Under the pieces are notes generated by a model, which worked only from the letters and a program-made list of their open reading frames with translations, did no database searches and had not been told where the DNA came from. DNA of 31,958 nucleotides from a virus, in IMG/VR virus record IMGVR_UViG_3300042294_000483, positions 1 through 31,958 of that record; one strand, given 5' to 3'. This document shows, piece after piece, positions 451-4,636 of this stretch; position 1 is the stretch's first letter; each line of letters starts with the position of its first letter. Both the position numbers and the translations under genes were made by a program.

Positions 451-826
451 TGCTCCTCAAGGCTGTGCGCCATGCCTCTCGCTGCGTTCTGGTCAACTCT
501 TCGCCAGCGTTTTCTCTGTCTCGCAGCTTATGCGCCCAGGCTTTTGGGTCTGGTCTGGTTTTCATCATGTCCCGCAGTGCGTGCAAGGTCGCAACCTTTT
601 CCGCTTGTGTCATTGGATTTGCAAATCCTGTGTTGTCCAAAGGCTTGCGCTTATGGAATTGAGCTTGCGTGATTTGCGGCCATTTGTGTGGATCTGCCCA
701 GGCATGGTCCGAGCAAAGTCTACCGCCAGTGTCCACGGCCCATCTGTTTGGACAGCCGTGCGCCTGGCAAAGCGTGTCGTTGGTTTCTGGCTCTGCGGGT
801 TTTGTTTTCCAAGATTCAAGTGCCAT
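443..826 (-). CDS. small Cys/His-containing phage protein, unknown function
   Basis: A 127-residue protein in the replication arm, lying between the DUF1376-type gene and the C5 methyltransferase. The ATG at 826 was chosen because it gives an 11 bp overlap with the upstream stop, while longer readings intrude further into that gene. Near the N-terminus are Cys-x3-Cys (C-QAHG-C type) and, about 18 residues on, C-x2-H, which could bind one zinc ion. The rest is polar and probably helical, ending in a basic stretch. Position next to a replication initiator would suit a helicase-loading or DNA-binding accessory role, but no family was recognised and this is only inference. Confidence 0.75.
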   Translation of the reverse strand: MALESWKTKPAEPETNDTLCQAHGCPNRWAVDTGGRLCSDHAWADPHKWPQITQAQFHKRKPLDNTGFANPMTQAEKVATLHALRDMMKTRPDPKAWAHKLRDRENAGEELTRTQREAWRTALRSNE

Positions 827-1583
827 GATATTTGCCCTCAATGATTTTTGCGAAGTTGCTCGGCTTGATGATCCACTCAAGGTCGGCCACAAAAGCTCGG
901 CCATCTTTGCTATTGACCTTGCCTGTCAAGAACTTGGATTTGTTGATGTGCTGGAAGAAGCCAGCCCACCATTCCAACACTGCTTCTTGTGTAGCTGGCC
1001 TACTCTGCCCAATGTCAGCAGCGACTTCACGCCATCTTTGCTTCAAGTAGCCCTTGCGGGTTTCGTTCCAGACTTCCACCCTGCGTAGGGTTGGCAAGTG
1101 CTGGTGATACAAGTCCATAACGGCTTTGTGTTGGCAAACTGGCAAACTATCTTTAGCCTCAGGTTCACCGTCAGGTGGACATATATATGTATCTTCTTGG
1201 TTATTGGTTATTGGTTTATGGTTTATGGTTGCTATTGGGGTTGCATTAGGGGGGCTAATAGCCTCCCTAATGCTACCCTTTGACCACCTCTTAGCCGCCC
1301 CACGTTTTCCGGCTTCTATAAACTCTTTGAACTTGGCAATCTCAGCATCTGCACGGGGGTGGATGAAGCCATCTTCAGCCGATGTGAAGAACTCATCTAG
1401 CACAGTCAAGACTTCTTGCTCGTAGTCCCTCATGCCTATTTGCCGAGCAATGTCACGCTGCTTGATAGGCACTTCATGCAGATAGTAATGGTCTAAAAGT
1501 CGGCGGTAAGCTATATCCTCAATCAAGGACAAATGATGTGTGTGTGACTTGTAGTCACCGATGTGAAATTGGTAATAGTGCAT
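816..1583 (-). CDS. DUF1376-domain phage replication protein
   Basis: A 255-residue protein. The first ~95 residues match the DUF1376 (YdaU-like) pattern: MHYYQFHIGDY at the start, then HLSLIEDIAYRRLLDHYY. A low-complexity Asn/Thr/Pro linker follows. The C-terminal ~110 residues include GRAFVADLEWIIKPSNFAKI, a segment typical of phage replication initiators. The ATG at 1583 is preferred over an upstream TTG at 1598 because the family begins with this motif. The likely role is origin recognition or helicase recruitment, by analogy with lambda O/P-type proteins. The linker DNA carries iteron-like repeats and a long palindrome (1132-1273), as in initiators that contain their own origin. There is no strong Shine-Dalgarno; only a GGG lies 7 nt upstream, inside a predicted leader stem. 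Confidence 0.85.
   Translation of the reverse strand: MHYYQFHIGDYKSHTHHLSLIEDIAYRRLLDHYYLHEVPIKQRDIARQIGMRDYEQEVLTVLDEFFTSAEDGFIHPRADAEIAKFKEFIEAGKRGAAKRWSKGSIREAISPPNATPIATINHKPITNNQEDTYICPPDGEPEAKDSLPVCQHKAVMDLYHQHLPTLRRVEVWNETRKGYLKQRWREVAADIGQSRPATQEAVLEWWAGFFQHINKSKFLTGKVNSKDGRAFVADLEWIIKPSNFAKIIEGKYHGT
1197..1231 (+). repeat. five tandem 7-bp iteron-like repeats
   Basis: Read on the plus strand the units are TTGGTTA, TTGGTTA, TTGGTTT, ATGGTTT and ATGGTTG, head to tail with no gaps. They encode the Asn/Pro/Thr linker of the replication protein on the other strand. This spacing is shorter than a helical turn, so a protein would contact pairs of units, or the tract may act as an unwinding element. 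Confidence 0.7.
1243..1273. repeat. 31-bp near-perfect palindrome
   Basis: The arms GCATTAGGGGGGCTA (1243-1257) and TAGCCTCCCTAATGC (1259-1273) flank a single A and pair over 15 positions with one mismatch. The palindrome lies 11 bp from the iteron tract, inside coding sequence. It could be a cruciform or a dimeric protein site. Confidence 0.75.
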
Positions 1584-1590
1584 TGAAGCG

Positions 1591-1673
1591 CCCAGCAAAA
1601 CCCACTGGAAAAGAAACGTCAGCAGGTGGTGGGTTCACTTTTCGGTCTGCTCATGACTTCAGACCTAGCTGGG
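1591..1673 (-). promoter_or_regulatory. candidate three-way-junction RNA leader before the replication gene
   Basis: The ~100-nt gap between two minus-strand genes contains three nested perfect stems as RNA. P1 pairs CCCAGC (1673-1668) with GCTGGG (1596-1591). P2 pairs GGTCTG (1665-1660) with CAGACC (1649-1644). P3 pairs AACCCAC (1635-1629) with GTGGGTT (1605-1599). P1 closes 7 nt before the ATG at 1583, and its 3' strand holds the only purine-rich ribosome-binding candidate, so folding could restrict translation. The pairings are seen; the regulatory role is inferred. Confidence 0.4.
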
Positions 1674-2628: not shown

Positions 2629-2910
2629 ATGAAAGTCAAAACAGCACTTTACGTGTATCACACCCAATACGCTTGGGAAGATCAAGGCAGCTACCAAGCC
2701 TACACCTGGAAATCTGACGACACAGCTACCAGCACTTTTGTTGGTCAGCAAGAAGTTGAATTGGAAATCCCCGACAACTACGACCCACGCCAACAGCAGA
2801 TAGCTGCACTGGTTGCCAGCAAACAAGCACTTATGGCCGAATACCAAAAGTCGGTCACAGAAATCAATGAGCGCATCAGCAAATTACAAGCACTGGAGTA
2901 CACAGCATGA
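2629..2910 (+). CDS. small phage protein with C-terminal coiled coil, unknown function
   Basis: A 93-residue protein. The start at 2629 follows GGAG from the second 18-nt leader repeat. The first ~45 residues look beta-rich and aromatic (TALYVYHTQYAW, SYQAYTW). The last ~40 are helical with heptad-like leucines and alanines (QQQIAALVASKQALMAEYQKS), suggesting oligomerisation. Its stop overlaps the start of the annealing-protein gene by 4 bp, so the two are translationally coupled. It may assist the recombination proteins, but no family was recognised. Confidence 0.75.
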   Translation: MKVKTALYVYHTQYAWEDQGSYQAYTWKSDDTATSTFVGQQEVELEIPDNYDPRQQQIAALVASKQALMAEYQKSVTEINERISKLQALEYTA

Positions 2911-3464
2911 AGAACATCGCCACCGCACTGGTAAAGGCACAGCAAGCCTTTGGCCCTGCCCTGAAAAGCAGCACCAACCCACACTTCCGCAGCCGCTATG
3001 CCGATTTGTCGGCCTGCGTTGAGGCAGTCATTGAAGGCTTGAACGGGGCTGGCATTGCCCTTGTCCAACGCACCAGCGAGGACACCACCGGGGTCACCGT
3101 TGAGACTGTGTTCATTCATGAGTCAGGCGAGATGCTGGAGTGCGGCAAGCTGCACGTGCCAGCAGCCAAGCAAGACCCGCAAGGCTACGGATCTGCTCTC
3201 ACATATGCAAGGCGATACAGCCTAATGGCAGCTTGCGGAATTGCACCTGAAGATGACGATGGCAACGCAGCCACACGCAAGGCTGTTCCAACTCCAGATA
3301 TCACCGACCATCTGGCTGCAATCGATGCCAGCGCCAACAGCGAAGAATTGGCAAAGGTCTACAAAGACGCACTGGCAGCTTGCGATGGCAACCAGGTGCT
3401 TCAGGCCAAAGTTATTGCAGCCAAAAAAGCTCGGGTTGAGCGTGCCAAACAGGAGAAATCATGA
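2907..3464 (+). CDS. erf: Erf-family single-strand annealing protein
   Basis: A 185-residue protein with the conserved Erf/ERF N-terminal pattern: AQQAFGPALKSSTNPHFRSRYADL (residues ~11-34), then a beta-rich segment, then GYGSALTYARRYSLMAACGIAPEDDDGN (~94-121). Proteins of this class bind single-stranded DNA as rings and anneal complementary strands, as P22 Erf does in circularisation and recombination. The C-terminal ~60 residues are helical and may recruit partners. A YqaJ/lambda-Exo-like nuclease gene lies three genes downstream, completing a two-component recombinase. Both ends are joined to neighbours by 4-bp ATGA overlaps. Confidence 0.92.
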   Translation: MKNIATALVKAQQAFGPALKSSTNPHFRSRYADLSACVEAVIEGLNGAGIALVQRTSEDTTGVTVETVFIHESGEMLECGKLHVPAAKQDPQGYGSALTYARRYSLMAACGIAPEDDDGNAATRKAVPTPDITDHLAAIDASANSEELAKVYKDALAACDGNQVLQAKVIAAKKARVERAKQEKS

Positions 3465-3667
3465 GCGCTAAAACAGGTGGGCCAGCGTTTCCACTGGTAA
3501 CAGAAAAGCAAATTCTGCATGATGGCATGACCCTGCGCGACTACTTTGCAGCCAAGGCGATGGCGCAACTTATGTTTAATTCGCCCGTTGTCCAAGACGA
3601 TGCTCGCACCACGGCATCGTGGGCATACGAATATGCAGACGCCATGCTGAAAGCGAGGGAAGTATGA
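3461..3667 (+). CDS. conserved small phage protein (GMTLRDYFAAKAM type)
   Basis: A 68-residue protein of a kind common in temperate phages of Proteobacteria. It has an N-terminal GGPAFP motif, then HDGMTLRDYFAAKAMAQLM, then a helical A-x-YEYADAMLKAR end. No biochemical role is established that I can name. It is coupled to both neighbours by 4-bp overlaps within the recombination operon. Confidence 0.85.
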   Translation: MSAKTGGPAFPLVTEKQILHDGMTLRDYFAAKAMAQLMFNSPVVQDDARTTASWAYEYADAMLKAREV

Positions 3668-4008
3668 GCTACACCCCTGAACGCTGGCACTTTCAAGACA
3701 ACACGCGCTACTCATCGCCTTGGACAACCAACCCCTACAGCATCATCACGCGCAAGCCTGGGGTTCATGGCACAACGATTGCCAACATCCCCAACCGCAG
3801 GACAGTGCCTGATGCTGAACAACGGGCCAATGCCATGCTGATTGCCCATGCCCCTGAGATGCTGGAACTCTTGCGCACATTTGTTGGTTGGTATTCAAAC
3901 AAAGAAAAGGACAATTTCCACAAAGTTATGCCATTCAAAAATCAACCACCTGAGATCCAGGCTGCGATGAAGTTGATCGAGAAAACAACAGGGGAATCGT
4001 ATGTCTGA
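3664..4008 (+). CDS. conserved early phage protein, unknown function
   Basis: A 114-residue protein. The start at 3664 overlaps the previous stop (ATGA), and upstream in-frame starts run back into that gene. It has an aromatic N-terminus (SYTPERWHFQDNTRY) and a segment NRRTVPDAEQRANAMLIAHAPEMLELLRTFV. The EQRANA-LIA-APEML-LL pattern is widespread in phage early regions, where such proteins remain uncharacterised. The last codons overlap the nuclease gene by 8 bp, so expression is coupled to the exonuclease. Confidence 0.8.
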   Translation: MSYTPERWHFQDNTRYSSPWTTNPYSIITRKPGVHGTTIANIPNRRTVPDAEQRANAMLIAHAPEMLELLRTFVGWYSNKEKDNFHKVMPFKNQPPEIQAAMKLIEKTTGESYV

Positions 4009-4636
4009 AGAACAAGGAACCGAAAGCTGGTTTGCCAACCGCTTGGGCAAAGTCACCGCCAGCCGCTTGGCTGATGTGCTTGCCAAAACAAAAACGGGTT
4101 ACAGCGCAAGCCGTACCAATTACATGACACAGCTTGTCCTGGAGCGCATCACCCAGACCAAGGCCGAGTCATTCAGTAATGCAGCAATGCAGTGGGGTAC
4201 AGAACAGGAACCCTTTGCACGGGCTGCGTATGAGGCGCATACGGGACAAATGGTCGAGGAAGTAGGATTCATACCTCACCCCGACATTGAGGCTGCTGGT
4301 GCCTCGCCTGATGGCTTGGTGGGTGATGATGGCATGGTCGAGATTAAATGCCCGTCATCCAGCACAGCCCTTGAAGTTTGGCTTACCCACTCGCAAGGCG
4401 GCAACCCTGTCGAAGCAAAGTACTACGCCCAGATGCAGTGGCAAATGCGCTGCGCTGATCGGTCTTGGTGCGATTACGTAGTCTTTGACCCCAGGATGCC
4501 AGCCAAGGCCCAGTTATTTATTCACCGAGTCGAACGCAATGCCGAATGGCTGAAGATTGCTGAAGATGAGGTCACCACGTTTTTGGCTGAAGTAGATGCC
4601 AAAGTCACCGCCCTTAAATCAATCATTGGAGAATGA
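4001..4636 (+). CDS. YqaJ/lambda-Exo-like recombination exonuclease
   Basis: A 211-residue protein of the PD-(D/E)XK recombinase class. The catalytic signature is clear: GTEQEPFAR around residue 70 supplies an acidic residue, ASPDGLV holds Asp104, and MVEIKCP holds Glu114 and Lys116. Downstream, YYAQMQWQM (141-149) is the conserved Gln-containing helix of the family. Lambda Exo-type enzymes form rings and degrade the 5' strand of DNA ends, handing the 3' strand to the annealing protein. Here that partner is the Erf-like protein encoded at 2907. Length is close to lambda Exo (226). The 8-bp overlap upstream indicates translational coupling. Confidence 0.93.
   Translation: MSEEQGTESWFANRLGKVTASRLADVLAKTKTGYSASRTNYMTQLVLERITQTKAESFSNAAMQWGTEQEPFARAAYEAHTGQMVEEVGFIPHPDIEAAGASPDGLVGDDGMVEIKCPSSSTALEVWLTHSQGGNPVEAKYYAQMQWQMRCADRSWCDYVVFDPRMPAKAQLFIHRVERNAEWLKIAEDEVTTFLAEVDAKVTALKSIIGE

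What the first reader, a model, noticed from the sequence alone, without database searches (positions are those of the whole stretch)
1132..1273. Origin-like iterons and a 31-bp palindrome inside the replication gene
Five tandem WTGGTTW 7-mers, two tandem TGGCAAAC 8-mers, a 12-bp AT palindrome and a 31-bp palindrome with a single mismatch all fall within 142 bp of the linker region of the DUF1376-type gene. Lambda's origin also lies inside its initiator gene. This would be a self-contained initiator/origin module in an otherwise uncharacterised phage.
Basis: partly seen in the sequence, partly recalled or inferred. Interest (0 to 1): 0.8.

Follow-up and report, generated by a model that had tools for sequence, protein, structure and literature searches.

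The report
Phage origin hidden in initiator gene
A short repeated DNA stretch inside a phage gene looks like the site where the phage starts copying its DNA, and many related phages keep the same stretch, a few of them outside the gene.

Summary
The repeats are real. The gene at 816-1598(-) joins a DUF1376 domain (predicted winged helix) to an O-like replication-initiation domain. Five 7-bp units (AACCNNN on the coding strand, 1196-1230) lie in its disordered linker. In relatives this linker is conserved as DNA: codon identity at shared residues is 0.79-1.00 over 25 codons, against a median of 0.49 in the N domain. Two of three reading phases prefer AACCANT; the third avoids the TAA it would create. 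A DNA-pattern scan of viral contigs put the array in a DUF1376 ORF in 116 of 120 stretches. Many relatives carry 11-bp repeats upstream, whose class follows the N domain. In five contigs of related phages the same 11-mer + 7-mer element is intergenic, while their initiator gene lacks it.

Best reading: a two-part phage replication origin, usually embedded in its own initiator gene as in lambda, but built from different parts. The 31-bp palindrome and the TGGCAAAC pair are not conserved (1 of 42 relatives' blocks each). No general AT-rich tract and no skew signal were found. Binding and origin activity are untested.

The parts
816..1598 (-). Initiator-like gene: DUF1376 N domain, disordered linker, O-like replication-initiation C domain (TTG at 1598 as listed; ATG at 1583)
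   Evidence: PF07120 1.8e-20; PHROG 5810 'replication initiation protein', residues 112-258, 1.8e-23, and others; linker residues 113-123 and 127-134 below pLDDT 50
1281..1583 (-). N-terminal DUF1376 domain, predicted winged helix, proposed DNA-binding part
   Evidence: AlphaFold2 pLDDT 94.9; weak fold matches, best Z 6.5
1196..1230 (-). Block 2: five tandem heptamers AACCNNN (coding strand)
   Evidence: three or more units kept in 73 of 80 relatives
1231..1273 (-). Block 1 of this clade: coding strand GCATTAGGGAGGCTATTAGCCCCCCTAATGCAACCCCAATAGC; the TTAGCCCCC core is conserved, the full palindrome is not
   Evidence: [AT]TAGCCCCC in 33 of 42 distinct relatives' blocks; palindrome arms of 15 in 1, 9 in 16, 8 in 4; codon identity 0.85-1.00 at shared residues
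1243..1273 (.). 31-bp palindrome, one mismatch
   Evidence: not conserved in full

Best explanation
The linker DNA of this gene is most likely the phage's replication origin. The DUF1376 winged-helix domain binds block 1 (11-bp repeats in many relatives, a GC-rich block here). The neighbouring array of five 7-bp AACCANT-type units marks where the duplex is opened and the helicase or its loader is placed, with the O-like C domain as recruiter. The protein is thus made from its own binding site, as in lambda O, and the linker peptide is largely a by-product of the DNA. Shown here: the repeats, their conservation as DNA, their strong association with DUF1376 genes, the tie between block 1 class and N domain, and the intergenic copies. 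Inferred: binding, melting, helicase loading, origin activity.
For: DNA-level conservation inside the coding region. AACCANT consensus with stop avoidance: in protein-recovered loci the last base is T in 62 of 65 and 86 of 104 units of the two phases that allow it (60 distinct arrays); 67 arrays agree. Pattern scan: 116 of 120 stretches in a DUF1376 ORF, two of the other four being the same linker cut by a contig end. Five or six units in 72 of 114 N-domain clusters. Significant 11-bp repeat in 69 of 114 clusters; where both blocks pass, the 11-bp block is upstream in 54 of 54. Block 1 class changes 20 times on the N-domain tree, 300 shuffles at least 33. Intergenic copies in L488 (= L543), L499, L544-L546, with no array in their DUF1376 ORF. 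Replication genes follow the DUF1376 gene in 8 of 17 annotated phage records read: DnaB or replicative helicase, primase/helicase, protein P, AAA or IstB-like ATPase. Predicted winged-helix N domain. O-like C domain.
Against: No experiment. Of 40 clusters recovered by protein, 15 miss the heptamer cut-off (one of them, L094, has heptamers outside the span searched) and some carry hexamers instead. E. coli K-12 ydaU, in the prophage with the known origin oriJ, has no AACC heptamers. No AT enrichment after the array (0.545 vs 0.541, 50 of 91 higher). No skew signal at the site in the window. Perfect AACCANT arrays occur in 72 of 74 viral stretches that hold no DUF1376 ORF. In the window no helicase or loader gene was identified beside this gene (446-904 has no Pfam match).
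Confidence: 0.74

Rival explanations
1. The repeats are a slippage-born low-complexity linker: only a flexible P/N/T-rich hinge is needed, and tandem DNA repeats supply it.
For: Some relatives have CCAACA (PTPT) or TCACCT (SPSP) hexamers in the same place; heptamer microsatellites exist elsewhere.
Against: Arrays outside DUF1376 ORFs that looked like microsatellites reached at most 24 of 44 at lag 11 upstream, against 31-36 for the intergenic elements.
Confidence: 0.1
2. The array is a recombination joint that lets N and C modules be exchanged among phages.
For: The same array sits between several N-domain types and several C-domain types (by eye).
Against: It does not explain the AACCANT consensus with stop avoidance, the order of the blocks, or intergenic copies away from any module border. 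It could be a side effect of a conserved origin.
Confidence: 0.08
3. The element is an operator or transcript element that controls the gene or its neighbours, not an origin.
For: The N domain is a likely DNA binder; L488 shows promoter-like TTGACA and CATAAT boxes, by eye, after the element.
Against: In-gene copies lie over 300 bp inside the gene; in L488 and L499 the element is 1.4-2.1 kb from the DUF1376 gene, in front of other genes. Rfam has no match in the window.
Confidence: 0.08

Closest known systems
Lambda / Stx phage origin inside gene O (iterons plus AT-rich tract; PMC7466680, passages read)
   Same: Repeated sites in the middle of the initiator gene; O-like C domain; helicase, loader or ATPase gene next door in 8 of 17 annotated relatives.
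   Different: N domain is DUF1376; units of 11 and 7 bp; no general AT-rich tract after the array; heptamers shared across N-domain types; intergenic in five contigs.
Rac prophage of E. coli K-12: ydaU (DUF1376), ydaV, oriJ (oriJ named in PMC3945230, one passage read)
   Same: DUF1376 gene followed by a putative ATP-binding protein gene, in a prophage described as having an active origin.
   Different: ydaU linker has GTTCAAACA-like repeats by eye but no AACC heptamers; the place of oriJ was not given in the passages read.
Heptanucleotide microsatellites (the STRR of cyanobacteria; name recalled, from no call)
   Same: Tandem 7-bp units.
   Different: Those seen here have mostly identical units, lie mostly outside ORFs and lack a comparable 11-mer block.

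Membership tests
Lambda-type origin inside the initiator gene | Repeated sites in the middle of the initiator gene | tested here: met
Lambda-type origin inside the initiator gene | AT-rich tract next to the iterons | tested here: not met
   over 91 clusters, 40 bp after the array is 0.545 AT vs gene 0.541, 50 of 91 higher; the other side was not measured; single cases, the window (1179-1190) and L488/L499, do have ATATAT there
Lambda-type origin inside the initiator gene | Initiator binds the repeats | not testable with these tools
   only an indirect sign: block 1 class follows the N-domain tree
Lambda-type origin inside the initiator gene | Helicase or loader gene adjacent | tested here: inconclusive
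   annotated in 8 of 17 phage records; none identified in the window
Lambda-type origin inside the initiator gene | Sequence starts replication | not testable with these tools
   none
DUF1376 (PF07120) | Profile score above gathering cut-off | tested here: met
   73.5 bits vs 30.1
O-like replication initiation C domain (PHROGs) | Profile match over the C part | tested here: met
   phrog_5810 1.8e-23, phrog_345 3.3e-14
Winged-helix DNA-binding domain | Helices plus wing in the N domain | tested here: inconclusive
   predicted helices and beta hairpin fit; best Z 6.5, rmsd 2.8 over 68 residues, none 8 or more; Foldseek none at E 0.001 or less
Simple microsatellite | Near-identical units | tested here: not met
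   the five units at 1196-1230 differ in NNN; relatives likewise

The most novel reading that the evidence does not exclude
The AACCANT heptamer array is a shared, strand-specific origin module, read by a factor other than the variable N domain (the C domain, a helicase loader or a host protein, perhaps on the opened strand), while the 11-mer block gives each phage its own specificity. This would be a modular origin design for a large phage group, mostly written inside protein-coding DNA.
Probability: 0.35. Interest if true: 0.86.

Novelty: new variant of a known kind. Interest (0 to 1): 0.76.

Why it matters
DUF1376 proteins occur in at least 107 phage records and in bacterial genomes, yet Pfam lists the domain as of unknown function, although PHROGs names some members primosomal or replication proteins. 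Five papers in the searched library name the domain; the passages read in two of them only list it. The element gives the family a testable role, points to a likely origin in many uncharacterised phages by sequence alone, and offers a natural case of a DNA signal shaping a protein linker, with intergenic copies as a control.

Tried and rejected
Full palindrome and TGGCAAAC pair as conserved parts: rejected. AT-rich tract after the array as a general feature: rejected. GC skew in the window: no signal at 1200. In L488 the detrended skew minimum is at 4050, next to the intergenic element, but in L544 it is some 200-350 bp off, and divergent transcription confounds both. Rfam: nothing at gathering score. 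Search for non-coding AACCANT arrays as further intergenic origins: 72 of 74 stretches hold no DUF1376 ORF; the other two carry one that stops inside the array. ACCCANN scan: 92 stretches found, 80 analysed, 52 with the array in a DUF1376 ORF; in 6 of these the array did not fall after the domain match and I did not resolve why; many of the rest are microsatellites. Sequence search of solved structures with the N domain: best E 0.37. Papers: searches showed no DUF1376 origin in their listings; one search found the lambda-type papers, the oriJ ones. Most subscription papers are outside that library.

Bias to bear in mind: L319-L530 and L549-L622 were fetched by heptamer patterns, so the 114-cluster figures, which use the former, are enriched for heptamers; the 40 clusters whose representative was fetched by protein similarity are the fair sample. 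The motif classes were set by my own regular expressions after looking at the blocks; 35 of 114 clusters fell in no class and were dropped from the tree count. In one search, 7 of 80 loci had no array, identical sequences were merged (59 kept), and the per-codon figures use the 1405 of 1653 pairs whose N-domain identity is under 0.65; the median over all 1653 pairs is 0.49. That titles name winged-helix proteins is in part my own knowledge.

Full report
Observation. The window is a 31,958-bp virus record. The gene at 816-1598(-) matches DUF1376 (PF07120, 1.8e-20) and, over its C part, PHROG families named replication initiation or O-like. The coding strand of its linker reads AACCATA AACCATA AACCAAT AACCAAT AACCAAG (1196-1230), preceded by a GC-rich palindromic block (1231-1273). 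The heptamer run exceeds chance even when the protein and codon usage are kept: 28 of 35 matches at lag 7, 0 of 2000 synonymous shuffles.

Close relatives. A protein search of IMG/VR gave 226 relatives, of which the best 80 were kept. Of these, 73 have three or more in-register AACCNNN units, 67 of them with 5 or 6; the other 7 include linkers with PTPT- or SPSP-coding hexamers. AACC recurs while the three bases between vary (AAT, ATA, AAG, AAA, ATT and others). The median codon identity at shared residues of the N domain is 0.49 over 1653 pairs of distinct sequences. In the 1405 pairs below 0.65, identity is 0.79-1.00 (mostly 0.9 or more) over 25 codons from the block 1 core through the array (L036 codons 107-131), and 0.37-0.97 in the codons just after it, where C modules differ. 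This is conservation of DNA, not only of protein.

The DNA consensus and the reading frame. A period of 7 passes through all three codon phases. In loci recovered by protein (60 distinct arrays), the last base of the unit is never T (0 of 93) in the phase where T would give TAA; in the other two it is T in 62 of 65 and 86 of 104 (one search gives the same picture on 67 arrays). The absence in the first phase is forced by the open frame; the excess in the other two is the informative part. The underlying unit is AACCANT.

Specificity. Of the 120 stretches fetched, 116 have the array inside a DUF1376 ORF, 2 more (L372, L382) are the same linker cut by a contig end, and 2 (L361, L418) are something else. 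With ACCCANN instead, 52 of 80 analysed loci (of 92 found) have the array in a DUF1376 ORF. Perfect AACCANT arrays that cannot be read through occur in 72 of 74 stretches with no DUF1376 ORF, mostly outside ORFs, so a heptamer array alone is not diagnostic. In 17 annotated phage records a strict array was found in 10, each time inside the DUF1376 gene and nowhere else in the stretch fetched; the other 7 have degenerate runs or hexamers.

Two-part layout. Five distant phages (N domains 37-47% identical to the window's) all have a period-7 run in the linker, and three of them an 11-bp repeat before it, clear in L082 and L083 and weaker in L084. Among 114 N-domain clusters, 95 reach 14 of 21 at lag 7 (87 with p at most 0.05 against synonymous shuffles) and 69 have a significant 11-bp repeat. 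In the 54 that pass both cut-offs the 11-bp block is upstream in 54. In the 40 clusters whose representative was fetched by protein similarity, 25 reach the lag-7 cut-off, 23 have a significant lag-11 block and 32 have either. Block 1 falls into classes (ATGCGAACGCA-like, GTTCAACGG-like, AACCCA/TGGGTT-like, AATCAG-like, and the GC block of the window). The class changes 20 times on the N-domain tree of 79 classed clusters; 300 shuffles needed at least 33. Heptamer type (AACC or ACCC) also follows the tree (8 changes, shuffles at least 13), but both types occur with three of the classes. Shared descent alone could produce part of this tie.

The intergenic case. In L488 and L499 the same layout (11-mers, five ACCCAA[TC] units, then ATATAT) lies between genes. 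The DUF1376 gene of the same contig has a short linker without repeats and, in L488, is followed by a gene with a DnaB-like C domain. L544-L546 repeat this with one 7-bp unit fewer, a change that a coding array could not take without shifting frame. L543 is the same contig as L488, so there are five contigs. Over 546 loci, many of them overlapping or near-identical, 433 arrays lie inside DUF1376 ORFs and 47 outside; the only outside arrays in loci that also bear a DUF1376 ORF are these intergenic ones. This separates the DNA element from the coding sequence and is the strongest evidence for a DNA function.

Protein. AlphaFold2 gives a confident N domain (pLDDT 94.9 alone) with helices and a small wing, a disordered linker, and a helical C domain. 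Matches to solved structures are weak (Z up to 6.5, Foldseek E 0.14 or worse) but largely winged-helix domains. In 8 of 17 annotated relatives the next gene is annotated as a replicative helicase, primase/helicase, protein P or an AAA/IstB-like ATPase; in the other 9 it carries no replication label. In the window the next gene encodes 153 residues with no Pfam match.

Reading. The parts fit a lambda-like arrangement, in which the origin (iterons and AT tract) lies in the middle of gene O (PMC7466680, passages). It differs in the initiator domain, the repeat lengths, the lack of a general AT tract and the possibility of lying outside the gene. I therefore call it a new variant of a known kind and say that it works like a lambda origin, not that it is one. 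What is not conserved is also clear: the 31-bp palindrome (1 of 42 blocks has arms of 15; 16 have arms of 9, 4 of 8) and the tandem TGGCAAAC (1 of 42).

Limits. There is no binding, melting or replication evidence. Over a third of the fairly sampled clusters (15 of 40) miss the heptamer cut-off, and E. coli YdaU is one DUF1376 gene without heptamers. Whether those use other repeats or have the element elsewhere was not settled.

Noticed in passing
L583:8164-8601 and L560: A DUF1376 ORF ends at a TAA inside its AACCAAT array, with the C part open further on: the gene is split or broken while the array is intact.
   Followed up: partly
L549-L622: Perfect heptamer microsatellites (AACCACT, AACCAAT, AACCAGT and others) lie mostly outside ORFs, by eye often just before a start codon, in many viral contigs without a DUF1376 ORF in the stretch fetched.
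   Followed up: no
L008, L012, L017, L025, L023, L028: N and C modules of the gene appear shuffled around the linker (by eye).
   Followed up: partly
L531:9569-9598: A CRISPR spacer feature is annotated inside the DUF1376 gene of Vibrio phage 1.183.O, some 40 bp before the heptamer array.
   Followed up: no
L012, L019, L025, L026: Hexamer repeats (CCAACA, TCACCT) stand where others have the heptamers.
   Followed up: partly
window 2907-4636: ERF annealing protein and YqaJ-type exonuclease genes on the + strand, a recombination pair.
   Followed up: no
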